Assembly (NCBI GenBank): GCA_009667805.1
Contig: CM019072.1
Coordinates: 35,581,519-35,645,518 of the forward strand
DNA length: 64,000 nt
Direction of reading: 5' to 3'
Source of the DNA: Leptobrachium leishanense
Taxonomy: Eukaryota > Chordata > Amphibia > Anura > Megophryidae
Position numbers and translations under genes: made by a program. The notes under the pieces were generated by a model. That model made no database searches, had not been told where the DNA came from, and saw only the letters and a program-made list of their open reading frames with translations. Positions 10,020 to 49,143 of this stretch are shown here, in pieces (positions within the stretch are counted from its first letter, which is position 1; every line of letters begins with the position of its first letter).

Positions 10020-12785
10020 TTTAAGGTTTACTGCCAAAGAGCACCCCAAAATATGTTCAGCAACATCTTCTGAGTAAATTGATACCACCCATGTATAGGT
10101 ATGTCGGGTCATTTGGGGGCTAATAGGCCTTATTTGGGGGGTGCGCATTTCAGTTTTCCAACTTGGAATTTTCACATTTCGTCATCATGCACCCATGTCC
10201 TATTTGGGACATTTTTGAAGCCGGCCAAAGTAATTTACCCCCATCAAACCATATATTTTTAGAAAGGGCACACCCTAGGGTGCTTCAAAGAGTTGTATTT
10301 TAACACTTTCCATGCACTAGCTCTATGTCAAACTTTCAGGTAGTCACTTTTTGGGTTATTTTTTTCACACACATTGTACTTTAGGCATGAATTGTCAAAT
10401 CCAGTTATGGGTTACTGCCAAAAAACACCCCAAAATATGTTCAGCAACATCTTCTGAGTAAATTGATACCACCCATATATAGATTTGTTCTGTTGTTTCT
10501 GGGGTGCTACGCCAATCTTTGACATGTGCTTGTCAATTTTCTAATTTGACATACAGTATCTTCTTTGCTTATCTTCTTTTTAGGGGCCTTTTTACATACC
10601 CCAGTTTTATGAACGTGCATATATTTGGTAAGCTAACACCCCAAAGTATTGTAAATGGAGTGTTTTTATGCTATGGATGCAACCGTTTGCTCCAAACAAA
10701 TTGGATACTGTTTGGTGGTCATTTTTCATTTTCACACCCACATCAGTTTTGGACTGTGATTTAGGAGACACGGTTGTTTGTTACTGCATGAAAACTCTCC
10801 AGGTTGTTTTCTGCAAGGTCTCCTGAGTACACGCATGCCCCCCATGCATAGGTTTGCCAGGATTTTGGGAAGGTTCAAATACAATTTTTATGACTTTGTC
10901 ATTGGAGTTGAAATTGAGATTATTTCTTCAGCTAGGCCTAGCTTTGGTTTTGGGTCTACCGCATACCCCAGTTTGAATTATTGCCAGAAAATTGTTTATA
11001 TTTGTTATATTGACACCCCAAGGTATTGCATATGGAGTGCTTTGATGCCATGGATGCAACGGTTTTAGCCAAAACATTTGAGAAGGTGTGTGGTGTAATT
11101 TTTCAATTTTCAGATTTTCACACCCACATCAGTTTTGGACTGTGATTTAGGAGACACGGTTGTTGTTACTGCATGAAAACTCTCCAGGTTGTTTTCTGCA
11201 AGGTCTCCTGAGTACACGCATGCCCCCCATGCATAGGTTTGCCAGGATTTTGGGAAGGTTCAAATACAATTTTTATGACTTTGTCATTGGAGTTGAAATT
11301 GAGATTATTTCTTCAGCTAGGCCTAGCTTTGGTTTTGGTCTACCGCATACCCCAGTTTGAATTATTGCCAGAAAATTGTTTATATTTGTTATGTTGACAC
11401 CCCAAGGTATTGCATATGGAGTGCTTTGATTCCATGGATGCAACGGTTTTAGCCCAAAACATTTGAGAAGGTGTGTGGTGTAATTTTTCAATTTTCAGAT
11501 TTTCACACCCACATCAGTTTTGGACTGTGATTTAGGAGACACGGTTGTTTGTTACTGCATGAAAACTCTCCAGGTTGTTTTCTGCAAGGTCTCCTGAGTA
11601 CACCCATGCCCCCCATGCATAGGTTTGCCAGGATTTTGGGAAGGTTCAAATACAATTTTTATGACTTTGTCATTGGAGTTGAAATTTAGATTATTTCTTC
11701 AGCTAGGCCTAGCTTTGGTTTTGGGTCTACCGCATACCCCAGTTTGAATTATTGCCAGAAAATTGTTTATATTTGTTATGTTGACACCCCAAGGTATTGC
11801 ATATGGAGTGCTTTGATGCCATGGATGCAACGGCTTTAGCCCAAAACATTTGAGAAGGTTGTGTGGTGTAATTTTTCAATTTTCAGATTTTTACGCCCAC
11901 ATTAGATTTGGACTGTGATTTAGGAGACACGGTTGTTTGTTACTGCATGAAAACTCTCCAGGTTGTTTTCTGCAAGGTCTCCTGAGTACACGCATGCCCC
12001 CCATGCATAGGTTTGCCAGGATTTTGGGAAGGTTCAAATACAATTTTTATGACTTTGTCATTGGAGTTGAAATTGAGATTATTTCTTCAGCTAGGCCTAG
12101 CTTTGGTTTTGGGTCTACCGCATACCCCAGTTTGAATTATTGCCAGAAAATTGTTTATATTTGTTATGTTGACACCCCAAGGTATTGCATATGGAGTGCT
12201 TTGATTCCATGGATGCAACGGTTTTAGTCCAAAACATTTGAGAAGGTGTGTGGTGTAATTTTTCAATTTTCAGATTTTCACACCCACATCAGTTTTGGAC
12301 TGTGATTTAGGAGACACGGTTGTTTGTTACTGCATGAAAACTCTCCAGGTTGTTTTCTGCAAGATCTCCTGAGTACACGCATGCCCCCCATGCATAGGTT
12401 TGCCAGGATTTTGGGAAGGTTCAAATACAATTTTTATGACTTTGTCATTGGAGTTGAAATTGAGATTATTTCTTCAGCTAGGCCTAGCTTTGGTTTTGGG
12501 TCTACCGCATACCCCAGTTTGAATTATTGCCAGAAAATTGTTTATATTTGTTATGTTGACACCCCAAGGTATTGCATATGGAGTGCTTTGATGCCATGGA
12601 TGCAACGGTTTTAGCCCAAAACATTTGAGAAGGTGTGTGGTGTAATTTTTCAATTTTTATTTTTACGCCCACATTAGATTTGGACTGTGATTTAGGAGAC
12701 ACTGTTGTTTGTTACTGCATGAAAACTCTCCAGGTTGTTTTCTGCAAGGTCTCCTGAGTACACCCATGCCCCCCATGCATAGGTG
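10020..12785 (+). repeat. ~387-bp tandem repeat array inside piggyBac
   Basis: The word 'ttaggagacac' recurs at 10761, 11147, 11532, 11920, 12307 and 12692, giving periods of 385-388 bp and five complete units plus a partial sixth. Units are nearly identical, although some carry 'acgcccacattagatttgg' and others 'cacccacatcagttttgg'. Two clearly related but diverged units precede the array, with 'gttactgccaaa...cacccc' at about 10029 and 10410 (380 bp apart). A 96-residue frame repeated in each unit is a by-product of the repeat and is not a gene. Confidence 0.93.
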
Positions 12786-12887
12786 TGCAAAGATTTTGGC
12801 AAAATACAGCACCAATTGTAGAACATAAAAATGTACGAATAAAATGTAAAAGTCTGGTGCAGTAAAAGAAAAAAAAACTAAACTGAA

Positions 12888-14642
12888 CTAACTAACTGGA
12901 GTGTGAGAAAAAATAGAAAGGAAAAAAAAATCACAGATCACCACAGTGTGATATATCTTGAAACAGTCCCCAAGACACAGACCGGGTTGTCCAGGGCATT
13001 CTGGGCAGTAAAAGATTGTGTCTCTCCTCTGCCCCCTCTTGAAACACACCCTGCACCTTTTTTGGGGTTTCTGTTTGCCCTCAGTAGGGGGGATTTTATA
13101 AATAAAATGCGTAGCCCCAACTCTGTCCCCCATCACCGCCCGGGGAGCAGGTGCATCCTGGTACAAAAGCCCCGAAATGACCTGGAGCTGAAACTGTAAA
13201 AAGGACAGCGTCACTCCGGGGTTTGCCTTTTTGCAGAGCAAAAAGGCATTGTGGGTTGCAATTTGCATCAGGTAAATTGCAACCTTTTTGTACCAGGCCC
13301 TTGACTTCCGCATAATCTGGTAGGGCTGGAGCAGCTGATCTGCCAGATCAACCCCACCCATATGCCGGTTATAGTCTTTGATGCACACTGGCTTCCTGAT
13401 GCGCTCAGCTCTGCCACGTACAGAGACCTCCACAGACCTCTCAGTGTGGCTGGTGGATAGAAGGTATACATCCTTCTTGTCTCTGTACTTGACCGCCAAC
13501 AGCTCCTCTTGGCGCAGAGCTGAGGTCTCCCCCCTTTTTAGCCGGGTGCGGACAAGCTGTGCTGGGAAACCTACGTGGTTCTTGCGAACAGTACTGCATG
13601 CTGCTGTATCAAAACAATACAGCAGCTTGAACAAAGGGACACTTGTATAAAAATTATCAACATACAAGTGGTACCCTTTGTTCATCAGGGGAAAAAGTAG
13701 GTCCCACACAATCTTGCCACTGGTTCCCATGTGTTCTGGGCAACCTGGAGGGTCAAGGCTACTATCCTTTCCCTCGTACACCCGGAAGGCCTGAGTATAC
13801 CCACTCTCGCTGTCACAGAGCTTATACACTTCACTCCATACCTGGAGCGTTTGGAAGGAATATACTGCTTGAATCCCAGCCTTCCCTTGTATTTCATTAG
13901 GGATTCATCCACGCAGATATTCCTTCCAGGTGTATAAGCCTCTGCAAACCTGGCGGCGAAGTGGGTAATCAAGGGCGGATTTTATACAGCCTGTCAAACT
14001 GGGGATGCTCTCTAGGAGGGCACAGGCTGTTGTCACTGAAGTGCATGAAACGCAAAATGTTTTCATACCTTCTACGTGACATTGATTGGGGGTAAATGGG
14101 GGTAGAGCAGATGGGGCTACTGCTCCAGTAGGAGCGAATTGAGGGCTTCTTTATGATGCCCATCAGCATAGTAAGTGCCCAGAATTTCAGAAATTCTGGC
14201 ACATCTAGCGGGGTCCATTGCTGCCTTGCCAAGTAGGAGTCTGGCTTCGCAGCACAATGCTGATGGGCATACAGATTTGATTGGGCCACGATGTGGCCCA
14301 ACAAATCATCCCCCATAAACACCTGCAAAAACTGTGTGGCGGTAAATCCTGCAACATCAATATTGATGCCAGGATTTGCCGTGAAAGGAGGGATATCTGG
14401 CCTCTGGCGATGAGGCACTACCCACTCCTCAGCTGGAGCTGTGCGTCTCCTGCTGGCAGGTGGTGACCCAGGATCTGCATCAGAAACATCACTAGATACA
14501 TCAGCCAGCGTAGATGATGTATCTAGCGACGTCTCTGAGCAGTTGCGGGGTCAAAATCAGGGTCGGAGTCTGACGCAGATGCCTCAGATTCTGATGCCAG
14601 GATGGCATATGCCTCCTCGGCGCTGTAGACCCTCTCAGACAT
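12888..14642 (-). pseudogene. piggyBac transposase, frameshifted
   Basis: This is a DDE_Tnp_1_7 family transposase, which cuts and pastes DNA at TTAA. It starts with an acidic N-terminus (MSERVYSAEEAYAIL, ATG at 14642-14640). The core follows: RRRYENILRFMHFS, then CVDESLMKYKGR (first Asp, codon at 13909-13907), then YHLYVDNFYTS (second Asp, 13658-13656), then DYNRHMGGVDLADQ (third Asp). A cysteine-rich C-terminus follows (CRVC, CPEC, CLGDC), as in functional piggyBac proteins. All three catalytic aspartates survive, but the frame changes at least three times (near 14520-14530, 13970 and 13832), consistent with single-base indels. It is therefore inactive as written. Few lesions and conserved motifs indicate moderate age. 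It supplies the strand and family of the surrounding 6.7-kb element. Confidence 0.92.
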
Positions 14643-24304: not shown

Positions 24305-24308
24305 GATG
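24305..24308. repeat. Target-site duplication GATG, left
   Basis: GATG directly precedes the TG of the 5' LTR and recurs at 31940-31943 directly after the 3' LTR. Confidence 0.85.
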
Positions 24309-24730
24309 TGAAGTGGAATCAGGCTGGAAAATGGTCGCTATTATGAGCCAAGCGGCCATCTTGTTCAGAATATTGGTTCACTTGCAAATAACTAGAGTAG
24401 ATTTTTGTAGACATTAGAGACGAAGCTTACATAGAATCTTAGGAATGTGGTTGATTAGGAGAACTAGCAATAAAATGAGGAATAATCCGGCCAGCGCTTG
24501 GCACGGAAAGACAGGAAAGACGAATGGTTACTACAAGGTCACATAGACCCGCAGTAAAACAAAGAGAGCGTAGAAACCAGGCCGTGCTCTAATCTATGAC
24601 AAACAAACACAGCCTTTAGGGAGGTGGGCACGGCCCAGGTCGAGTGAAGAAGCAAATCACAGACTGTCAGAACATTTGCCAATTTATTACCAATGTATGG
24701 AATTTCTTTGTACTAACGAGGGGAGGTATT

Positions 24731-24772
24731 AGCCCACCTCCCGATGACACTTTATTCCACCCCACGTGGGTT
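24731..24772. other. 42-bp segment inverted relative to the 3' LTR
   Basis: This segment is the exact reverse complement of 31687-31728. Its edges form a short inverted repeat ('ttagcccac' ... 'gtgggttaa'), which is the type of structure that promotes hairpin-mediated template switching. Confidence 0.97.
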
Positions 24773-24804
24773 AATTGGGATGTACCTAATTACGTATTTT
24801 GGGG

Positions 24805-24809
24805 TATAA
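24805..24809 (+). promoter_or_regulatory. LTR TATA box
   Basis: TATAA within 'ggggtataagacccc' lies about 80 bp upstream of the AATAAA signal, the expected place for the U3 promoter. Transcription would start around 24830. The same box is at 31761 in the 3' LTR. Confidence 0.75.
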
Positions 24810-24882
24810 GACCCCTGGTCGGGGGGGAGACGGGGCTCACTCTTTGCGATTCAATCCTGTGTGAGCATTTGTGTGACGACAC

Positions 24883-24888
24883 AATAAA
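24883..24888 (+). terminator. LTR polyadenylation signal AATAAA
   Basis: AATAAA sits in 'gacacaataaagtttgcc'. The counterpart in the 3' LTR (31839-31844) would direct 3' processing of the proviral transcript. Confidence 0.8.
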
Positions 24889-24987
24889 GTTTGCCTTTCC
24901 TGAAGAGACTCATGTTCAGACAATCCTTGCTTGTGTCCGGTCCGGCGCCGTATTGAAAGTGAACCTGATTGACTCCGGTAACATTTT

Positions 24988-25008
24988 TGGGGGCTCGATA
25001 GCCGGGAT
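24988..25008 (+). other. Primer-binding site, tRNA-Pro-like
   Basis: TGGGGGCTCG starts four bases after the 5' LTR. This is the expected complement of the CCA end of tRNA-Pro. The rest ('atagccgggat') matches the continuation only if about three extra bases are allowed, so the primer assignment is probable but not perfect. Confidence 0.65.
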
Positions 25009-26091
25009 ACGGGCCTTTTGCCGGGCAAAGCAACGGCTGCTGAACACTGTAGCGGTTGACTGCAGGTGCGAGTGATCCCGTCGGTTGGGCGTCCGTTGAA
25101 GGTGAGCTGACATCTGCAGGCGCCGAGCAGGATTTCCTGTTCAGTGGACCTCGTCTCGTCCCAAACGGACTCCCGGCCCAGGAACCTGGGACACCACCGA
25201 GTCCGAGGAAACAGCGAGCAGCGCCGGCGATAGGTAAAGTGTCTTCTATGTTTGTATGTCTGAAGGAGATACCGGTATAAAGGGAAACGTCTGACTGATA
25301 GTCGGATAAGGAGACCCGATGGCCTCGGTCTCGTTGGTATACCTAGCCCGCCGCTGATAGCACGGACAATGCAAAAGAGCCAGAGTGGCTATCGCGTGTC
25401 TGGATTCGGGGGAATTGGATGCCAACCAAAGGGTAGTTCTGTAAGAGAGGGAGAAGGTAGCCACGTGGAGTTGCATAGTCATAGTCAGTATTTGTAAACA
25501 AAGCTTCGCCACGTGGATTGAAGGAAAGGAGGAGGGATTTCTGTGACTGGGCTTAGAGCCCTGAGTCAGTGCTAGTGTGTACATCGTGTAGTGAAGAGGG
25601 CTTATTAAAGCCAGTGGTAGCTGCAGAGGTAGTGGTGCCGGGTGGGTAGATTATCCATAGGCAAATTGGAATTGCAGACGGGAGTATTGTTATAGAACGG
25701 GGTGCACATAGTCACAAGCAGGCAAGAGTTAGAGTTCAATAAACGGGGTATAAGGAGCCAAAAGGAGGGACGGCGTGCCCTCGGCTAGTAGAAAGAGTTG
25801 AAGTGTTTATGTTCTGTTATGTGCTGAAAGTATCTGGTACAGTATGTGCTGTGAGTGAATTGATTCGAGTGCTGTGAGTGAACACGCGCCTACTCGCCCC
25901 GCGAGGAAGCAAACTCGAGAGTTGACTCCCGAAGTACGGTTCCGGCTCAGGCGACTGCAGTCGGCTACTGACAGAGGAAGCGCCCCAGACACGCAAGAAT
26001 TGTTGGCTGAAGTATCAGACTGTAGATTCTAATTGTCATTGTTAAAAGTAATATCTGTGTTGTAAGAAGGTTACTGTTTTCAAGAGTAACA
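25009..26091 (+). other. Proviral 5' leader
   Basis: About 1.1 kb lies between the primer site and the gag start. This is where packaging signals and the major splice donor are expected. A plausible donor is AG|GTAAAGT at 25232-25240. No long frame on the + strand begins with a good initiation site before 26092. Confidence 0.55.
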
Positions 26092-27905
26092 ATGGGTAAC
26101 GGGTCATCAAAGCCCAAGAAGGTGCAGAAGGGTGAGACGCCCCTAGAATATATGGTGTGGAATTTCGAGGCGTTATATGTAACGCACGACTATGGTGTAG
26201 AATTGACAAAGGAGAAGCTAAAATTAATGTGTACAATTGTATGGCCATTGATAGTCCCAGAATGGCCAGAGCAGGGGTCGATGGACCCAGAGCTAGTACA
26301 GAAGGTGCATTCCCAAGTCACCGGGCAATGTGGACATCCTGAACAGTACCCGTATATAGATATATGGAGGTACTGTATAAAAAGATAAGAGTCATTTTAT
26401 AATGATAGCGGGGAAAAACAAGAGGCAGGTACCCCCAAATAATGAGGAAAGAGGGAGACCGGTGTTGGTAGAACAACCGGAAGAGAGTGATTCTTTGCCC
26501 CCAACCTATCCATCGAGTTATGGGGCAGCTAGAGAAGCTTTGAGTGCCGCGGCTGCGCGGGCGGAGAGGAGGGGGCAGGCAGCTGCTGTTCCTCAGTCGG
26601 GCTCCCTCGGCTCCGTCACGCGGGGTTGCGGAGGAAGAGCAAGGCGCAGCGGGTGGAGGGGATGGAGAGGCTTCACCAGAAAAGATTGAGATGCCCGATG
26701 GGAGCGTATATAAATTAGTATCCCACAGAGGAGGTGATAGTGAGAGAGAGGATGAGAGACAGGGAGCCACCACTCGCGCAGCGAACAATATACATAAACC
26801 CCGGGATCCATACCAACACGATCCCTATAGAAGTAAGATGCAAATGCCTTTGCGGGAGGTGCCAGGCCCTCCACTAGCCGATGGAGCACCGGGGCCGGTG
26901 CAATACACTTATGTCCCATTCACGACAACAGATCTTTTTAACTGGAAAACACACACACCACTGTATTCCACAAATCCTGCAGCAGTGGCCAGTATGATAG
27001 AGTCAGTTATGCTCACACATAACCCCACATGGGCAGATTGTCAGCAATTAATGTTGACAATGTTTACTACGGAGGAAAGAGCCCGGATAAATAGTAGCGC
27101 GCAAAAGATTTTACTCGCCCAGGCTGTAGCAGACGCAAAGCCCCAGCCAGAAGCGTGGGCAGAGGAACACTACCCCAAATCAGATCCCAAGTGGCCGTAC
27201 AACACCCCGGGAGGTATTGCCCATCTGCAGACGTACAGAACAGCGGTAATAATGGGTGTTAAAGCAGGAGGGAAGAAACCCACAAACATGGGGAAAATAG
27301 CGGATGTGATACAAGAAATTAAAGAATCCCCAAGTGCATTCTTGGAAAGGTTGCTGGACGCATACAGAATGTATAGTCCTATTGACCCTGAGGCAGCAGA
27401 AAATCAGAGGTTAATTAACTCTTCATTTGTTGGTCAATCACAGAGGGATATACGGAACAAAATACAGAGATTAGATGGGTTTTTGGGGAAAGGTATTAGC
27501 GAATTAGTTGAGATCGCCAATAAGGTGTATCATAACCGGGATCTAGAGGAAATAAAGAAACAGAAAGGATATACTGGTGTGGTCGGATATATGGGGAATG
27601 GTGGAGGACGAGGTGGCCCAGATAGAGGGAGGGCAAGGGGTAGGGGGGCTAGAGGAAGAGGTAGGGGAGCCCCTAGGGAACCCCTAGGACCCAATCAGTG
27701 CGCCTGGTGCCAGGGTGAAGGTCACTGGAAAAACGACTGTCCTGCATTTTTGGCTAAATTTGGGGGACAAGGGGAACATGGGGAAGCGGGAGGTCAAGCC
27801 TCTAACGGCCAGGTAACAGACGGCAGGTATGAAAGAAATGAGGGGGCCGGAGCAGGGTTTGTGGGATTAGCGGGAACGTCATTTGAAGGGCAGGATGCAT
27901 ATTGA
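26092..27905 (+). pseudogene. gag: gag polyprotein, disrupted by two frame changes
   Basis: Gag builds the virus core at the membrane. The matrix part starts at ATG 26092 (MGNGSSKPKK) with glycine 2 placed for myristoylation, and stops at 26386-26388. A second frame from about 26402 carries a PPTY late-domain motif (26498-26509), used for budding through ESCRT. The third frame (within 26544-27905) holds capsid: FTTTDLFNWK, then the major homology region PSAFLERLLDAYRMYSP (about 27327-27380). Nucleocapsid has an RG-rich stretch and one CX2CX4HX4C zinc knuckle (CAWCQGEGHWKNDC, 27699-27740). The frame changes lie near 26388-26402 and within 26545-26689. It ends in TGA at 27903-27905, with pol continuing in the same frame, as in gammaretroviral stop-codon readthrough. 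Confidence 0.92.
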
Positions 27906-29114
27906 CAAGGACCTGGACCCATCCCGCTCGGTAACCACGAGCCCACGGTCACTATGAGAGTGGGAAATAAAGATGAAATTTTTATGGTTGACACCGGTGC
28001 CGAATTCTCTGTTGTAACAAAGCAAATTGCACCCCCAATGGGAAATGAAGTTGATATTATGGGAGCAATGGGAGTGTCTGCTAAATATCCCTTTCTTGCT
28101 TCTCGAAAATGTAGTGTGGGTGGGCATAATGTTGAACATGAATTTTTGTATATGCCCGAATGTCCCATCCAGCTCCTGGGGCGGGATATCCTTTGCAAAT
28201 TGCAAGCCCAAATTACGTTCCTTCCCGGGGGACACGCTCAATTAGACCTGCCTGAGAGTGGCAGCTCTGCTCGGCAGCATAACCCAGCCAGCCAGCACCC
28301 CCAGTCTGTGAAAATTGCGGTGATTATGCCAAGAGAGGAGGAATGGTGCACGGCACCTACTCTACCGGCCGCGCCGGACCCGCACGCACTACTCCTTCAA
28401 ATCCCTGGGGTATGGGCGGAAGAAAACCCGCCCGGACTCGCTGTAAATATACCCCCGGTATACGTTGAATTAAGACTCGGTGCAACGCCTGTGGCTCTAA
28501 GACAATATCATATCCCACAAAAAGCCAAGCAGAATATCCAGACACATTTACAGAGACTCAAAGATCACGGCATATTCAAATTCTGCGTGTCACCATGGAA
28601 CACACCCCTTTTGCCAGTACTGAAAGAGGGCACACAAGAGTACCGCCCTGTTCAAGATCTACGGGCTGTCAATGAGGCCACAGTAACCCTACACCCTGTG
28701 GTTCCTAACCCATATAATTTGCTGGCATTAATTCCCGGAGATACAAAATATTACACAGTGCTTGATTTAAAAGACGCTTTCTTTTGCATCCGTCTGGCTC
28801 CTGCAAGCCAGCCCCTTTTTGCATTTCAGTGGGAAGAGTCCACCACGGGGGCGCGCCATCAAATGACGTGGACACGCCTCCCTCAAGGTTTCAAAAACTC
28901 GCCCACAATTTTTGGGTGCGCGCTCAGACAAGATCTCCTCGCCTTCAACGCTCAGCCAGACGAAGTTGTGTTACTCCAATATGTCGATGATTTATTACTG
29001 GCTTCCCCCACGGAAAAAGACTGTTTATCTGCCACAAAAGCCTTGCTACATCTACTGTGCCAAGCAGGTTACAGAGTTTCCAGAAAGAAGGCAAAATATG
29101 CAAACAAAGTGTAA
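27906..29114 (+). pseudogene. pol: pol: protease and N-terminal reverse transcriptase
   Basis: This frame continues directly from gag after the TGA. An aspartic protease comes first, with active-site VDTGAEFSVV (Asp codon 27990-27992) and the LLGRDIL flap-side motif. Reverse transcriptase follows: YRPVQDLRAVNE, YTVLDLKDAFFCIRL (first metal-binding Asp), LPQGFKNSP, and the catalytic box LQYVDDLLLA (YVDD from 28980). The frame closes at 29112-29114 inside the palm/thumb, while the protein clearly goes on in another frame (29057-31216). A one-base loss in an A-run near 29090 best explains this. All catalytic residues seen are conserved, so the damage is slight. Its product would be made as a Gag-Pol fusion by readthrough. 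Confidence 0.93.
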
Positions 29115-31216
29115 AGTACCTGGGTTTCCAGTTAACAGGTACCAAACGAGCATTGGGGGCTGAAAGAAAAGAAGCAGTATGCCGAATACCCCAGCCAAAG
29201 ACCAGAAGACAAGTCCGTGAGTTTCTGGGAGCTGCAGGCTTCTGTCGCCTGTGGATCCCCAACTTCGCAGATATTGCCAAGCCCCTTCATCAAGCCACAA
29301 AGGGGGGAGAACAAGACCCCTTCCATTGGGAAAAAGAGCAAACAGCAGCATTCCTGAAATTAAAAACTCTGCTAATGGAAGCTCCTGCACTGGGACTGCC
29401 AGATCACAGCAAGCCCTTCCAGCTGTACGTGCATGAACACAACCAAACAGCAACAGGAGTATTGATCCAAAGTTTCGGCTCCTGGCTAAGGCCTGTGGCC
29501 TATCTCTCCAAGCAACTCGACCCTGTGGCTTGTGGCCTACCCCCATGCCTGAAAGCAGTGGCAGCCACCGCAATGCTGATAGCAGAAGCAGACAAGCTGA
29601 CCCTTGGACAGGTTCTTCATGTCAAGGTGCCCCATGCTGTCAAGGCCCTGCTGGATGTGAAAGGAAGCTACTGGTTCAGCAACAGCTGGATGACGAAGTA
29701 CCAAGCCATGATGTGTGAAAACCCACGGGTTCATTTGGACCTCATCGCTACCCTGAACCCTGCTACTTTACTGCCTGACTGTGAAGAGGATCCAGATCAT
29801 GAATGCCTCCAAGTCATGGAAGAAGTGTTCAGTAGCAGGCCAGATCTGAAAGACGTACCCCTAGACAAATACGATCTACAGCTATTTACTGATGGTAGCA
29901 GCTACATGGATGATGGGAAGAAAGTCTCCGGCTATGCAGTAGTCTCAGCAGAAGAAATTATCGAAGCAAAGCCACTGCCAGGCCACACATCTGCACAATT
30001 GGCTGAAATAACGGCCCTAACCAGGGCTCTAGAAATCTCAGAAGGCAAGAGAGTAAATATCTACACTGATTCCAAATATGCCTTCATGACAGTCCATGCA
30101 CATGGTGCACTCTACAAAGAAAGAGGCCTACTTACTTCTTCAGGACAACAAATCAAGTATGCAGCTGAAATCGCGGCCCTCCTAGAAGCTGTATGGAAAC
30201 CAAGCGCCGTTAGCATCATGCACTGCCGAGGCCATCAAAAGGGCCATGATGAAATTCCAAAATGCAACAGACGTGCTGACCAAGCTGCAAAAGCAGCTGC
30301 GAAACCAATACTAACTGAACAAGCCAAGGTTCTACTCTGCAAGCAAGAGCCCCAACCTCCCATGCCGAACTACGAATTCTATATGAATTGGAGGAAATTT
30401 GAACCCAAAGGCGAATTCATTGAAACAATACTGCACAAATGGCAAGATGATTTCGACCTACTAGAACTCAATCATGATTACATCCAATGGCTATTTCCTA
30501 CCCGATGTCAAGGCCGAAATTTCTATTCCACTCCTCTGAACCCTCAAGAGACACATCTAATGATTGACACCTCAGAAATTCAGCAAAGACTACGCAAAGC
30601 ATACAAAATGATGCTGAAGTTCTTCGGCGTAAAAATAATGGGGGAGTGTGGAGAAGACACAAAAGTAACCGAAGTTGAACGAGCAGAAAATTTCGCCTCA
30701 CGTTTTGAAAATCTGACAATCAACACTCATAATAATCTGCGGATTACACGAATACTGCAAAGTTTGGGAGAATTGGGAGCAGAAGAATACCAAGCCCCGT
30801 TGGTAAGGTTCTTCCTCAAGGAGATCCTTATCAAGAACAGAATGCCAAGAATGAAGAAAAGTGCAATGGACTTTTTCATACCAGCAGTAAGAGATACACA
30901 AGACAGACAAGATCTACTGTTCTTCGCATGGCGCTATTATTTTCCAAAGGAGGAATTCGTCTGGGGAAACCATGGAGAATGGTTCGGATCCATCTTGAAA
31001 TTTATTTCACAGATTGGATCCATGATACTGATGATAGTGGTGGTCTTGATCATAGGGATACTGATATACCGCATAGGGCTATGCCTATGGCCACTGTGCA
31101 AGGCAGCACTGACGCCCACACAAACACAAAAGATACCACTGATAATTCCACATGATATGTTCCCAACGGGAGTGGGTCCCCAAAGGTATGAGGAGTTTCA
31201 GAATAGCAGGGTGTGA
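29057..31216 (+). CDS. RT C-terminus, RNase H, OGFr-family domain and membrane anchor in one frame
   Basis: About 719 codons are open to the TGA ending at 31216; the true start is by frameshift from the preceding RT part, and the GTG at 29057 is not a start. Residues 1-230 are RT thumb and connection (KQSVKYLGFQLTG, VREFLGAAGFCR). RNase H spans about 270-416 with catalytic D279 (LFTDGSS), E317, D338 (YTDSKYAF) and D408 (RRADQAA). Residues about 438-640 match the OGFr conserved region: FIETILHKWQDDFDLLELNH, DYIQWLFP, HNNLRITRILQSLGELG, YQAPLVRFFLKE and FVWG. Residues 641-719 hold a strongly hydrophobic helix (MILMIVVVLIIGILIYRIGL) and a short tail, like the end of a retroviral envelope. No integrase domain is present. 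The frame is fully open through all three parts. Confidence 0.9.
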   Translation: MPSRLQSFQKEGKICKQSVKYLGFQLTGTKRALGAERKEAVCRIPQPKTRRQVREFLGAAGFCRLWIPNFADIAKPLHQATKGGEQDPFHWEKEQTAAFLKLKTLLMEAPALGLPDHSKPFQLYVHEHNQTATGVLIQSFGSWLRPVAYLSKQLDPVACGLPPCLKAVAATAMLIAEADKLTLGQVLHVKVPHAVKALLDVKGSYWFSNSWMTKYQAMMCENPRVHLDLIATLNPATLLPDCEEDPDHECLQVMEEVFSSRPDLKDVPLDKYDLQLFTDGSSYMDDGKKVSGYAVVSAEEIIEAKPLPGHTSAQLAEITALTRALEISEGKRVNIYTDSKYAFMTVHAHGALYKERGLLTSSGQQIKYAAEIAALLEAVWKPSAVSIMHCRGHQKGHDEIPKCNRRADQAAKAAAKPILTEQAKVLLCKQEPQPPMPNYEFYMNWRKFEPKGEFIETILHKWQDDFDLLELNHDYIQWLFPTRCQGRNFYSTPLNPQETHLMIDTSEIQQRLRKAYKMMLKFFGVKIMGECGEDTKVTEVERAENFASRFENLTINTHNNLRITRILQSLGELGAEEYQAPLVRFFLKEILIKNRMPRMKKSAMDFFIPAVRDTQDRQDLLFFAWRYYFPKEEFVWGNHGEWFGSILKFISQIGSMILMIVVVLIIGILIYRIGLCLWPLCKAALTPTQTQKIPLIIPHDMFPTGVGPQRYEEFQNSRV
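30368..30976 (+). other. Host-derived OGFr-family domain (captured sequence)
   Basis: The ~200 residues from PNYEFYMNW to FVWGNH cover essentially the whole OGFr N-terminal conserved region. Cellular OGFr (opioid growth factor receptor) binds Met-enkephalin and restrains cell proliferation at the nucleus. OGFr and OGFr-like genes are spread over several exons in vertebrates, yet here the domain is continuous with no intron. That fits capture from a spliced mRNA. An in-frame ATG (30362) stands just before the domain and could allow separate translation from a spliced message. The repeat and polymorphic C-terminal regions of cellular OGFr are absent. Domain identity is by recognition of conserved motifs, not by a search. 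Confidence 0.88.
30977..31213 (+). other. Env-like transmembrane segment and tail
   Basis: After the OGFr part the frame continues through EWFGSILKFISQIG, a hydrophobic stretch of about 22 residues, then LCLWPLCK and a polar tail of about 35 residues. Position before the polypurine tract and composition fit the C-terminus of a retroviral TM protein. The surface unit, fusion peptide and ectodomain are missing. The juxtaposed cysteines could be palmitoylated. If translated, this would anchor the OGFr domain in a membrane. Confidence 0.7.
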
Positions 31217-31254
31217 TGCTACAAGCATCAGGAAAAGAACCTGAGGCTTGAGCC

Positions 31255-31264
31255 AAGGGGGGAA
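31255..31264 (+). other. Polypurine tract
   Basis: AAGGGGGGAA lies directly against the 3' LTR and would prime plus-strand DNA synthesis. Confidence 0.9.
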
Positions 31265-31939
31265 TGAAGTGGAATCAGGCTGGAAGATGGTCGCTATTAT
31301 GAGCCAAGCGGCCATCTTGTTCAGAATATTGGTTCACTTGCAAATAACTAGAGTAGATTTTTGTAGACATTAGAGACGAAGCTTACATAGAATCTTAGGA
31401 ATGTGGTTGATTAGGAGAACTAGCAATAAAATGAGGAAAAATCCGGCCAGCGCTTGGCACGGAAAGACAGGAAAGACGAATGGTTACTACAAGGTCACAT
31501 AGACCCGCAGTAAAACAAAGAGAGCGTAGAAACCAGGCCGTGCTCTAATCTATGACAAACAAACACAGCCTTTAGGGAGGTGGGCACGGCCTAGGTCGAG
31601 TGAAGCAGCAAATCACAGACTGTCAGAACATTTGCCAATTTATTACCCATCTATGGAATTTCTTTGTACTAACGAGGGGAGGTATTAACCCACGTGGGGT
31701 GGAATAAAGTGTCATCGGGAGGTGGGCTAATTGGGATGTACCTAATTACATATTTTGGGGTATAAGACCCCTGGTCGGGGGGAGACGGGGGCTCACTCTT
31801 TGCGATTCAATCCTGTGTGAGCATTTGTGTGACGACACAATAAAGTTTGCCTTTCCTGAAGAGACTCGTGTTCAGACAATCCTTGCTTGTGTCCGGTCCG
31901 GCGCCGTATTGAAAGTGAACCTGATTGACTCCGGTAAAA
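31265..31939 (+). repeat. 3' LTR, 675 bp
   Basis: It is collinear with the 5' LTR. It ends GGTAAAA where the 5' copy has GGTAACA, so the canonical CA end is mutated here. It has TATA at 31761 and AATAAA at 31839-31844. The 42-bp block 31687-31728 is in the opposite orientation to that of the 5' LTR and places an additional AATAAA on the plus strand near 31703. Confidence 0.97.
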
Positions 31940-32091
31940 GATGAACTGGAATCTAATGTATTTCCTTAGGCAACATTTGAAAGAAAAGAATAGACTGTAT
32001 TTAGTGACAAGTGTAATAGAAGCCTTTCAAGGAATTTCTTTTTCCCCTCTGTTTATTTGCATGTCCCAAGGCCATCTGTAACTGCCTGTGA

Positions 32092-32700
32092 ATTATTATT
32101 ATTATTATTCTTTATTTATAAAGCACCAGCGTATTCCGCAGCGCTGTACAATGGGCACAATATAGACAGGGTTACAATACATTGAATGACATTTTGACAA
32201 ACCAGTACAGGAGGAAACTAAGGGAACTTACAATCTAGAAGGGTTGAGGGTGGAAACAGGAGGAGAGAACTGCAAGGTGAGAGTGATGGGCTGCAAGGTG
32301 GGAGTGATGGGCTGCAAGGTGGGAGTGATGGGCTGCAAGGTGAGAGTGATGGACTGCAAGGTGAGAGTGATGGGCTGCAAGGTGAGAGTGATGGGCTGCA
32401 AGGTGAGAGTGATGGACTGCAAGGTGAGAGTGATGGACTGCAAGGTGAGAGTGATGGGCTGCAAGGTGAGAGTGATGGACTGGTGGGAGTCAGTGAGTCG
32501 GGTGGTAGGCTTCCTTAAATAGGAATGTCTTAAGGGACCGTTTGAAGGAAGGGAAACTAGGGGAAAGTCTTACCATACGAGGGAGAGCGTTCCAGAGGAT
32601 TGGAGCTGCGCGTGAGAAATCCTGCAGTCTGTCATGGGAAGAGGTGATGCGGGGAGAAGCTAGGCGCTGGTCACTGAATATTATACTTCTTTAGTGTACA
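32092..32700 (-). repeat. Retroposon tail with minisatellite and associated frog repeat
   Basis: 'tttataaagcaccagcg' and 'ttccgcagcgctgtaca' are the reverse complement of the tail seen at 49540-49580, with an ATT microsatellite at its end. The following block ('gggagagcgttccagaggat', 'gcgtgagaaatcctgcag') is of a type that recurs in anuran genomes. I infer a 5'-truncated LINE or SINE-like retroposon in minus orientation. Confidence 0.55.
32264..32486 (+). repeat. 21-bp minisatellite, about 10 units
   Basis: Units of 'ctgcaaggtgagagtgatgg' plus one base are repeated with single-base variants (gagag/gggag; ggg/gga). Because 21 is a multiple of three, repetitive frames are open on both strands. 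These are not genes. Confidence 0.95.
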
Positions 32701-34906: not shown

Positions 34907-36521
<1,615 letters not shown>

Positions 36522-41579: not shown

Positions 41580-43193
<1,614 letters not shown>

Positions 43194-47489: not shown

Positions 47490-49143
47490 TACAGTCAGGT
47501 ACAGAAATATTGGGACATCTACACAATTCTAACATCTGTGGCTCTATACACCACCACAATGGAGTTGGAATGAAACAAACACAATGTGATTTAACTGCAG
47601 ACTGTCAGCTTTAATTTGAGGGTATGTACATCCAACTCAGGTGAACGGTGTAGGACTTACAGCAGTTTGCAGATGTACCTCCCACTTGTTAAGGGACCAA
47701 AAGTAATGGAACAATTGGCTTCTCAGCTGTTCCATGGCCAGGTGTGTGATATTCCCTCATTACCCTAATTAAAATGTGCAGATAAAAGGCCCAGAGTTCA
47801 TTTCAAGTGTGCTATTTGCATTTGGAATCTGTTGCTGTCAACTCTCAAGATGAGATCCAAAGAGCTGTCACTATCAGTGAAGCAAGCCATCATTAGGCTG
47901 AAGAAACAAACAAACCCATCAGAGAGATAGCAAGAACATTAGGCGTGACCAAAACAACTGTTTGGAACATTCTCAAAAAGAAGGAACGCACCAGTGAGCT
48001 CAGCAACACCAAAAGACCCGGGAGACCACGGAAAACAACTGAGGTGGATGACCGAAGAATTCTTTCCCTGGTGAAGAAAACACCCTTCACAACAGTTGGC
48101 CAGATTAAGAACACTCTCCAGGAGGTAGGTGTATGTGTGTCAAAAGTCAACAATCAAGAGAAGACTTCACCAGAGTGAATACAGAGGGTTCACCACAAGA
48201 TGTAAACCATTGGTGAGCCTCAAAAACAGGAAGGCCAAATTAGAGTTTGCCAAACAACACCTAACAAGCCTTCACAGTTCTGGAACAAGAGCCTATGGAC
48301 AGAAGAGACCAAGATCAACTTGTACCAGAGTGATGGGAATAGAAGAGTATGGAGAAGGAAAGGAACTGCTCATGATCCTAAGCATACCACCTCATCAGCG
48401 AAGCATGGTGGTGGTAGTGTCATGGCGTGGGCATGTATGGCTGCCAATGGAACTGGTTCTCTTGTATTTATTGATGATGTGACTGCTGACAAAAGCAGCA
48501 GGATGAATTCTGAAGTGTTTCGGGCAATATTATCTGCTCACATTCAGCCAAATGCTGCAGAACTCATTGGACGGCGCTTCACAGGGCAGATGGACAATGA
48601 CCCAAAGCATACTGCAAAAGCAACCAAAGAGTTTTTGAAGGGACAGAAGTGGAATGTTATGCAATGGCCAAGTCAATCACCTGACCTGAATCCCACTGAG
48701 CATGCATTTCACTTGCTGAAGACAAAACTGAAGGGAAAATGCCCCAAGAACAAGCAGGAACTGAAGACAGTTGCAGTAGAGGCCTGGCAGACCATCACCA
48801 GGGATGAAACCCAGTGTCTGGTGATATCTATGCATTCCAGACTTCAGGCTGTGATTGACTGCAAAGGATTTGCAGCCAAGTATTAAGAAGTCAAAGTTTG
48901 ATTTATGATTATTATTCTGTCCCATTACCTTTGGTCCCTTAACAGGTGGGAGGCACATCTGCAAACTGCTGTAAGTCCTACACCATTCACCGTACAGTTG
49001 GATGTACATACCCTCAAATTAAAGCTGACAGTCTGCAGTTAAATCACATTGTGTTTGTTTCATTCCAACTCCATTGTGGTGGTGTATAGAGCAAAAGATG
49101 TTAGAATTGTGTTGATGTCCCAATATTTCTGGACCTGACTGTA
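47490..49143 (+). mobile_element. Tc1/mariner element 3
   Basis: TA flanks both ends (47490-47491 and 49142-49143). Inverted repeats of about 215 bp start CAGTCAGGTACAGAAATATT and CAGTCAGGTCCAGAAATATT. It is inserted in the ~30-bp repeat of the surrounding hAT element. Confidence 0.95.
47850..48886 (+). pseudogene. Tc1-family transposase with frame lesions and an altered first catalytic residue
   Basis: It starts at ATG 47850 (MRSKELSLSVKQAI). DNA-binding helices follow in shifted frames (TKTTVWNILKKKE, RPGRPRKTTEVDD with the GRPR-type linker). The frame changes at least three times, near 47900-47945, 48130-48150 and 48270-48320. The C-terminal catalytic part, 48320-48886, is open: GGGSVMAWACMA, QMDNDPKHTA (second Asp), PDLNPTEHAFHLLK (Glu) and ending GFAAKY with a TAA. 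In the segment normally reading W-T-D-E-T the codons at 48296-48310 give W-T-E-E-T, so the first catalytic Asp is Glu (GAA, 48302-48304). The copy is inactive by frameshift regardless. Confidence 0.92.

What the first reader, a model, noticed from the sequence alone, without database searches (positions are those of the whole stretch)
24309..31939. Endogenous retrovirus that has transduced an OGFr-family host gene
Seen: a provirus bounded by 675-bp LTRs and a GATG duplication has gag, protease, RT and RNase H, but then a ~200-residue domain with the signature motifs of the opioid growth factor receptor family (YIQWLFP, NNLRITRILQSLGELG, QAPLVRFF, FVWG) where integrase and env should be. Known: acutely transforming retroviruses replace viral genes with a captured cellular sequence, and cellular OGFr restrains proliferation. 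Inference: this is a defective transducing retrovirus, the capture was made from spliced RNA (no intron in the domain), and it may have acted as a dominant-negative or decoy for the host receptor. I am not aware of a described OGFr-carrying retrovirus.
Basis: partly seen in the sequence, partly recalled or inferred. Interest (0 to 1): 0.96.

Follow-up and report, generated by a model that had tools for sequence, protein, structure and literature searches.

The report
Frog retrovirus carrying host receptor domain
A family of endogenous retroviruses in the genome of a frog (probably the moustache toad Leptobrachium leishanense) carries, inside its polymerase gene between RNase H and integrase, a domain whose closest relative found is the frog's own growth-receptor gene OGFR; a seven-residue signature of that domain matches at over three thousand places in the genome, and the domain was likely kept because it helped the virus, whereas the copy found here is a one-off that lost its integrase and most of its envelope gene.

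Summary
In detail: window 24309-31939 is a provirus with 675-bp LTRs, a GATG duplication and gag-PR-RT-RNase H, followed by an OGFr_N domain (Pfam E 1.3e-72). The reading needs correction. This is not a one-off transducing virus in which a captured gene replaced integrase and env. In 45 of 45 other places read, OGFr is followed within 42 nt by integrase: an addition to Pol, in the slot where non-primate lentiviruses carry dUTPase. An intron-free OGFr signature matches 3,138 genome places and one form of the RNase H-OGFr junction 486. The window's OGFr-to-envelope junction occurs once: a private deletion at a GGAGAA repeat. Viral domains form one clade (100/99), set apart together with the frog's own OGFR (99/97), which has introns that the virus lacks. 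One capture of spliced OGFR RNA, then amplification under purifying selection (median dN/dS 0.12, in a sample that leans low), is well supported. The viral function is inferred: most likely a virion-carried OGFR mimic acting early in infection. Among the listed rows of three protein searches, OGFr joined to Pol appeared only in this frog species.

The parts
24305..24308 (.). target-site duplication GATG, 5' copy
   Evidence: sequence
24309..24983 (+). 5' LTR, 675 bp, TG...CA
   Evidence: direct repeat with 31265-31939
24728..24775 (.). 48-bp stretch inverted relative to the 3' LTR (31684-31731)
   Evidence: 100% inverted match
24988..25010 (+). primer-binding-site-like stretch just after the 5' LTR (tRNA not identified; label recalled, untested)
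   Evidence: sequence
26092..26388 (+). likely start of gag (ORF beginning MG; label by position), in another frame than the rest of gag
   Evidence: ORF
26544..27905 (+). gag: Gag_p30 and a weak CCHC knuckle; ends in TGA in the same frame as the protease ORF
   Evidence: Pfam; frame and stop
27954..29114 (+). protease and reverse transcriptase
   Evidence: Pfam RVP and RVT_1
29876..30301 (+). RNase H
   Evidence: Pfam RNase_H, residues 274-415 of the 719-aa ORF
30302..30361 (+). linker between RNase H and OGFr (low-confidence linker in the model of the relative P0122)
30362..30973 (+). captured OGFr_N domain, intronless
   Evidence: Pfam E 1.3e-72; AlphaFold pLDDT 90.5; groups with the frog's OGFR in the tree
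30974..30979 (+). GGAGAA at the deletion junction, present on the OGFr side (L010, L011, L045) and the env side (L010) of other copies; integrase and most of env are missing here
30980..31216 (+). tail that looks like the C-terminal end of Env TM with a membrane span (about 31013-31069), fused in frame to OGFr; stop at 31214-31216
   Evidence: no Pfam Env match
31254..31264 (+). purine-rich tract next to the 3' LTR (label by position)
   Evidence: sequence
31265..31939 (+). 3' LTR, 675 bp
31940..31943 (.). target-site duplication GATG, 3' copy
   Evidence: sequence

Best explanation
A gammaretrovirus-like virus of this frog lineage likely captured spliced OGFR RNA once, and its descendants in the genome, at least hundreds and likely thousands of copies, carry the intronless OGFr domain between RNase H and integrase of Pol, where it would travel in the virion and is predicted to mimic or block the host OGFR brake on cell division. 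Shown by calls: the position between RNase H and integrase, one open frame with them in database proteins, a single viral clade that groups with the frog's own OGFR gene, lack of that gene's introns, and genome-wide recurrence. Shown: the window copy is a private deletion derivative in which OGFr is fused in frame to an Env-like tail. Inferred: packing into virions as part of Gag-Pol, release by the viral protease at the flexible linkers, and action early in the newly infected cell as an OGFR mimic or decoy that loosens the OGF-OGFr brake on the G1/S step, useful to a virus type that needs dividing cells. The function step alone I hold at about 0.3; the anatomy and origin at about 0.95.
For: Position: OGFr is followed by the integrase zinc part on the element strand in 45 of 45 distinct fetched places (48 pieces; L004, L008 and L023 repeat other places), at most 42 nt away; L051, fetched later, agrees. 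RNase H end to OGFr start is 42-378 nt in 40 of 42 places where RNase H was found, over 1 kb in the other two. Database proteins show OGFr with RNase H and/or integrase in one chain (P0001, P0008, P0013, P0029; P0121-P0123). Addition, not swap: gap at most 42 aa in 114 of 114 OGFr-less pols with both flanking domains, 204-238 aa in three OGFr pols. Numbers: YIQWLFP-coding pattern 3,138 places, reversed control 1; an intron cuts this signature in both host genes read. RNase H-OGFr junction pattern 486 places, control 0; the same anchor leading straight to an integrase-start codon pair, 0 places. Origin: 18 viral rows one clade 100/99; a branch with 99/97 sets them apart together with the frog's OGFR from 22 other host rows; grouping with OGFRL1 p-AU 0.030. 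A 34-row viral set was also one clade, SH-aLRT 100. Pol tree: 14 OGFr rows one clade, SH-aLRT 100. Selection: median dN/dS 0.12 over 122 pairs with dS 0.3-1. Protein distances of OGFr follow RNase H (r 0.95), RT (0.93), integrase zinc part (0.86) and core (0.72). Fold: pLDDT 90.5; in P0122 the domains are confident blocks with linkers under pLDDT 50 on both sides of OGFr.
Against: The fetched places come from the 150 best OGFr-profile scores of 5,871 first-look candidates, which favours conserved copies, and 12 of 46 rows with stops were left out of the dN/dS. OGFr evolves faster than RT, RNase H and integrase at dS 0.3-1 (0.12 against 0.039-0.079), so the constraint is weaker. The 3,138 and 486 are pattern counts, not read one by one; the junction pattern's gap is not held to whole codons, and the anchor's own count did not complete, so there is no denominator. 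The OGFr-less pattern is strict and would miss diverged copies. The host OGFR row was pieced by me from tblastn matches read as five exons. Before it was added the donor was unresolved (p-AU 0.23 for OGFRL1, 0.15 for mammal OGFR), and the tree is unrooted. No expression, cleavage, ligand-binding or virion data exist here. The nearest pol outside this genome (Pelobates fuscus P0235) skips the slot in its gene model, so whether it has OGFr is unknown.
Confidence: 0.8

Rival explanations
1. The OGFr domain stays attached to, or next to, integrase and serves as a targeting or tethering module: it would guide the pre-integration complex to the nuclear envelope or chromatin, as chromodomains do in some retrotransposon integrases (recalled).
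For: In 45 of 45 places the domain abuts the integrase N-terminus by at most 42 nt; [quoted passage not shown]
Against: The linker to integrase is predicted disordered (P0122, stretches 358-361 and 363-373 under pLDDT 50), and FIV, a lentivirus with dUTPase in this slot, cuts it free (PMC3230847, passages). Integration sites were not compared.
Confidence: 0.25
2. The domain is a passenger: captured by chance, without function, and carried along because the copies descend from a few master viruses.
For: At dS 0.3-1 OGFr is the least constrained of the five Pol stretches compared (median dN/dS 0.12 against 0.039-0.079), in a sample that leans towards conserved copies.
Against: dN/dS well under 1 over 122 pairs, and pN/pS 0.33-0.37 between three subfamily groups with near-saturated dS; intact predicted fold; no match to the pattern in which the RNase H end leads straight to integrase.
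Confidence: 0.08
3. One reading: a defective, acutely transducing retrovirus in which captured OGFr replaced integrase and env.
For: True of the anatomy of this one copy.
Against: Integrase follows OGFr in 45 of 45 other places; the window's OGFr-env junction is unique in the genome and sits at a 6-nt repeat shared by both parent stretches.
Confidence: 0.02
4. The OGFr part is an independent processed pseudogene or an assembly artefact inside an ordinary provirus.
For: Intronless, as a retroposed copy would be.
Against: The same position in copies on many contigs, one viral clade, one open frame with RNase H and/or integrase in database proteins, and 486 junction matches with 0 in the control.
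Confidence: 0.01

Closest known systems
dUTPase of non-primate lentiviruses (FIV, EIAV, visna, CAEV)
   Same: An extra, cell-like domain encoded in pol just upstream of integrase: PMC8278194 (passages) says upstream of IN in non-primate lentiviruses; PMC3230847 (passages) lists RT, RNase H, dUTPase and IN as separate products of the FIV protease.
   Different: The domain is OGFr_N, not dUTPase; the backbone is gammaretrovirus-like (Gag_p30; PF18697, the MLV-type integrase C-terminus by my recall of the name, in P0121); the donor is traced to the host lineage's own OGFR.
Acutely transforming (oncogene-transducing) retroviruses
   Same: Capture of a spliced cellular gene from the host (recalled for the class; lack of introns tested here).
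   Different: No viral pol domain was given up in the family: RNase H and integrase flank the OGFr domain, and the form is present in hundreds to thousands of germline places.
Gammaretrovirus-like (class I) ERVs of reptiles, birds and amphibians, such as P0125, P0126 (Podarcis), P0198 (avian reticuloendotheliosis virus) and P0235 (Pelobates fuscus)
   Same: RT, RNase H and integrase homologous (RT 72% with P0235 and 68% with P0125).
   Different: The RNase H-integrase gap in 114 OGFr-less pols is at most 42 aa; P0235 itself cannot be judged.
Vertebrate OGFR and OGFRL1
   Same: The whole OGFr_N domain, 24 invariant columns in a 35-row alignment of viral and cellular rows.
   Different: The two cellular genes read here split the domain by introns; the viral copy is intronless and lies inside Pol.
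OGFr protein of Marseillevirus LCMAC202 (giant virus)
   Same: Only fold match at E 0.001 or better in BFVD: E 2.4e-7, TM 0.68.
   Different: A separate 186-residue protein of a DNA virus at 20% identity.

Membership tests
Gammaretrovirus-like (class I) endogenous retrovirus | paired LTRs with a short target-site duplication | tested here: met
   675-bp LTRs and GATG
Gammaretrovirus-like (class I) endogenous retrovirus | Gag_p30 capsid and CCHC knuckle | tested here: met
   Gag_p30 E 3.5e-56; zf-CCHC only E 0.0045, 17.5 bits, under its cut-off of 20.8
Gammaretrovirus-like (class I) endogenous retrovirus | gag and pol in one frame separated by a stop codon | tested here: met
   TGA at 27903-27905, protease ORF in the same frame; read-through not shown
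Gammaretrovirus-like (class I) endogenous retrovirus | pol groups with gamma-like pols | tested here: met
   39-row tree of RT+RNase H+IN core with 25 OGFr-less rows that I picked from the 116 listed; PF18697 in P0121 and P0123. No betaretrovirus or spumavirus row was in the tree.
Gammaretrovirus-like (class I) endogenous retrovirus | gamma-type Env features | not tested
   only a tail is left in the window; env of other copies was not read
OGFr_N domain family | Pfam OGFr_N above its cut-off over most of the profile | tested here: met
   244 bits, cut-off 22, profile 6-204 of 208
OGFr_N domain family | binding of [Met5]-enkephalin | not testable with these tools
   no assay
Acutely transducing retrovirus | captured cellular sequence lacking introns | tested here: met
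Acutely transducing retrovirus | cellular sequence replaces viral genes, so a helper is needed | tested here: not met
   for the family: integrase follows OGFr in 45 of 45 places; the window copy lacks integrase and most of env by a private deletion
Acutely transducing retrovirus | tumour induction | not testable with these tools
   no assay
Retroviral dUTPase-in-pol | extra domain between RNase H and integrase | tested here: met
Retroviral dUTPase-in-pol | the domain is a dUTPase | tested here: not met
   OGFr_N is the only family found at 30362-30973; no dUTPase among the four families found at E 0.1

The most novel reading that the evidence does not exclude
A retrovirus lineage turned its frog host's own growth-restraining receptor into a permanent Pol domain: each virion would deliver a host-derived OGFR mimic from the dUTPase slot, pushing the newly infected cell towards division before integration, and the frog genome now holds thousands of copies of this stolen receptor domain.
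Probability: 0.3. Interest if true: 0.96.

Novelty: new variant of a known kind. Interest (0 to 1): 0.88.

Why it matters
Host genes captured by retroviruses are known mainly from short-lived transforming viruses that gave up viral genes, and from dUTPase (recalled). Here a domain traceable to a named host gene, with donor, slot and intron loss all visible in one genome, became part of Pol and was kept while the virus multiplied. It offers a capture that can be followed in detail, makes the question of what the dUTPase slot is good for testable with a second domain, and provides many natural variants of OGFr_N, a domain for which neither a sequence search nor a fold search of solved structures found a relative.

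Tried and rejected
Searches for a solved OGFr relative gave only a weak E 0.02 hit to a fusion protein, taken as chance, and no PDB fold match at E 0.001. IMG/VR viral contigs: no match to six peptide patterns; records of this genome may be left out there. Rfam on the window: nothing. The donor tree without the frog's own genes was undecided. The first OGFr-less pattern (gap 18-48 nt) was too narrow for a P0125-like linker (about 64 nt by my count), so it was repeated with 48-78 nt; both gave 0. A count of the RNase H anchor alone was asked for and never answered. Pelobates fuscus P0235 as an OGFr-less sister was rejected as evidence, because its gene model skips the slot.
Full report
What is in the window. 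Window 24309-31939 is a provirus with two 675-bp LTRs and a GATG duplication. Pfam finds Gag_p30, protease, reverse transcriptase, RNase H and then OGFr_N at E 1.3e-72. RNase H, the OGFr domain (30362-30973) and a hydrophobic tail share one 719-aa open frame. The tail looks like the end of an Env TM protein: matching tails lie downstream of integrase in L014 and L032 and of a cut-short integrase in L010, though Pfam names no Env family here. Gag lies in two frames and pol in two frames, so this copy is defective. The LTRs differ at 9 of 673 aligned positions, with a 48-bp stretch inverted in one LTR. At an assumed 1-2e-9 changes per site and year (a guess, no frog rate was looked up) that is about 3-7 million years.

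Whose genome. The window lies in an unnamed 3.54-Gb assembly. The 15 best rows of the protein search are UniRef entries of Leptobrachium leishanense, and that species has a published 3.5-Gb genome (PMC6895153, passages). I take the host to be this toad; that is an inference.

It is a family. The OGFr_N profile gave 150 scored matches, all over the cut-off, out of 5,871 first-look candidates. A pattern for the YIQWLFP signature matches 3,138 places, against 1 for the reversed pattern. In the two host genes read, an intron falls inside this signature. A pattern for the RNase H end followed 78-108 nt later by the OGFr start matches 486 places, control 0. The same RNase H end followed by an integrase-start codon pair 18-48 or 48-78 nt later matches 0 places. 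These are pattern counts; the places were not read one by one, the gap is not held to whole codons, the OGFr-less pattern is strict, and a count of the RNase H end alone did not complete.

Where the domain sits. I fetched 48 pieces covering 45 distinct places out of the 150 scored matches. Domain by domain, OGFr is followed by the integrase zinc part in 45 of 45, with 42 nt or less between. L051, fetched later, agrees. RNase H was found upstream in 42; the spacing is 42-378 nt in 40 of them and more than 1 kb in two. A database search with a natural RNase H-OGFr-integrase stretch scored 7,990 candidates, found 361 and listed 120. Of these 120, 4 carry OGFr plus pol, all L. leishanense, and 116 are pols without OGFr from lizards, snakes, caecilians, birds, bats and others. 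Among the 116, 114 have both flanking domains, and the gap is at most 42 aa, against 204-238 aa in three OGFr pols. In P0125 about 11 residues lie between the two matched domains. So the domain was inserted into the linker without loss of RNase H or integrase. In the first protein search (120 of 609 rows listed), 25 rows carry OGFr plus pol sequence, all listed as L. leishanense; named rows of other species are mostly labelled OGFR or OGFRL1, and some rows are unnamed. In a third search with the Pelobates pol (120 of 646 listed), OGFr appears only in P0121 and P0123, both L. leishanense. So within these capped lists no other species shows OGFr joined to pol; unannotated genomes of other frogs were not searched.

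The window copy is a later deletion. The OGFr side in L010, L011 and L045 reads through GGAGAA into the linker to integrase; the env side in L010 reads through GGAGAA into the tail; the window joins the two at that repeat. This junction occurs once in the genome with up to three mismatches allowed, at the window itself. Copies with OGFr 97-98% identical to the window (L011, L045, L047) all have integrase.

Origin of the domain. A fragment of OGFRL1 found the frog's own OGFRL1 on C4 at 80% identity. The region shows introns with GT-AG-like borders after YIQW, after EIE and after LNE. A fragment of frog OGFR found a match on C12 (67%) and a second 15 kb away (64%). In the first, the domain is spread over four tblastn matches, the last with two in-frame stops in the middle, which I read as five exons with splice-like borders. 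With both genes added, 18 viral rows form one clade (100/99), and a branch with 99/97 sets them apart, together with the frog's own OGFR, from the other 22 host rows. The tree is unrooted, and the other frog OGFR-like rows next to them are not well resolved. Grouping with OGFRL1 is disfavoured (p-AU 0.030); an earlier tree without these rows left the donor open (p-AU 0.23 for OGFRL1, 0.15 for mammal OGFR). Viral rows are 51-63% identical to the frog's OGFR and 42-48% to its OGFRL1. One capture of spliced OGFR RNA in this frog lineage is the simplest reading. The pol tree agrees: 14 OGFr rows form one clade (SH-aLRT 100), with Pelobates fuscus P0235 as sister (98). P0235 cannot be used as an OGFr-less sister, since its gene model, like those of three caecilian pols, jumps from RNase H into the integrase core.

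Selection. Of 46 rows, 34 have an OGFr stretch without stops. Among these, pairs with dS 0.3-1 have median dN/dS 0.12 (122 pairs), against 0.052 for RT (30), 0.039 for RNase H (82), 0.079 for the integrase zinc part (62) and 0.052 for the integrase core (81). Between three subfamily groups, with dS near saturation, OGFr pN/pS is 0.33-0.37. Protein distances of OGFr track RNase H (r 0.95, 190 pairs), RT (0.93, 55 pairs), the integrase zinc part (0.86, 153) and the core (0.72, 210). The sample was drawn from the best profile scores and leaves out rows with stops, so these values lean low.

Structure. The window domain is predicted as a mostly helical fold with mean pLDDT 90.5. No PDB fold match reached E 0.001, and the only viral match at that level is an OGFr protein of a giant virus. 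In P0122, RNase H, OGFr and integrase are largely confident blocks, with stretches 136-151, 358-361 and 363-373 under pLDDT 50 on either side of OGFr, as expected of separate domains on a string.

How it may work. dUTPase lies upstream of integrase in non-primate lentiviruses (PMC8278194, passages); in FIV it is cut out by the protease and matters in non-dividing cells (PMC3230847, passages). By analogy an OGFr domain in this slot would travel in the virion and act early. OGFr is placed at the nuclear envelope and nucleus, and OGF restrains proliferation through p21 in pancreatic cancer cells (PMC2253554, passages). A virus-borne mimic could sequester ligand or partners and ease that brake; gammaretroviruses need dividing cells (recalled). 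The step from anatomy to function is inference. The main rival is a tethering role next to integrase.

Novelty. Ten full-text searches of an open-access library (some lists were capped) showed no title on an OGFr-carrying retrovirus; those that held OGFr terms together with retrovirus or mobile-element terms are. The L. leishanense genome paper has no 'opioid' or 'OGFR' in its main text, and PMC10435555 lists this species among threatened vertebrates with recently invading ERVs, with no 'opioid' or 'OGFr' in its main text (passages). Subscription papers and supplements were not seen.

Noticed in passing
24728-24775 and 31684-31731: 48 bp of the 5' LTR are inverted relative to the 3' LTR with 100% identity; which LTR holds the original orientation is not known.
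   Followed up: partly
L010 2827-3033 and 4531-4701: Another copy shows only the first part of the integrase zinc domain and then the Env-like tail; no integrase core was found, perhaps a separate loss.
   Followed up: no
G000 C12 about 9481306-9481530 and 9496677-9496901: Two OGFR-like exon matches 15 kb apart, possibly a tandem OGFR pair in the host; only the second region was read (L050).
   Followed up: partly
L021, L024, L025, L031, L035, L036, L037, L040, L046: Nine copies have a longer RNase H-OGFr linker (240-378 nt against 42-127 nt in 31 others); seven of the nine fall in one viral clade.
   Followed up: no
P0235, P0241, P0251, P0252: Automatic gene models of Pelobates and caecilian ERV pols jump from RNase H into the integrase core, so the slot cannot be read from the proteins.
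   Followed up: partly
P0016: A Clarias magur protein holds two OGFr stretches in tandem.
   Followed up: no
10728-12799: Tandem array of a 387-bp unit, 5.4 copies, 97% matches.
   Followed up: no
32270-32482: 21-bp minisatellite, 10 copies, about 330 bp beyond the 3' LTR.
   Followed up: no
35205-36155 (-), 41909-42972 (+), 48320-48886 (+), 12888-14418 (-): ORFs that look like Tc1/mariner-type and piggyBac-type transposases (by eye, not tested with a family search).
   Followed up: no
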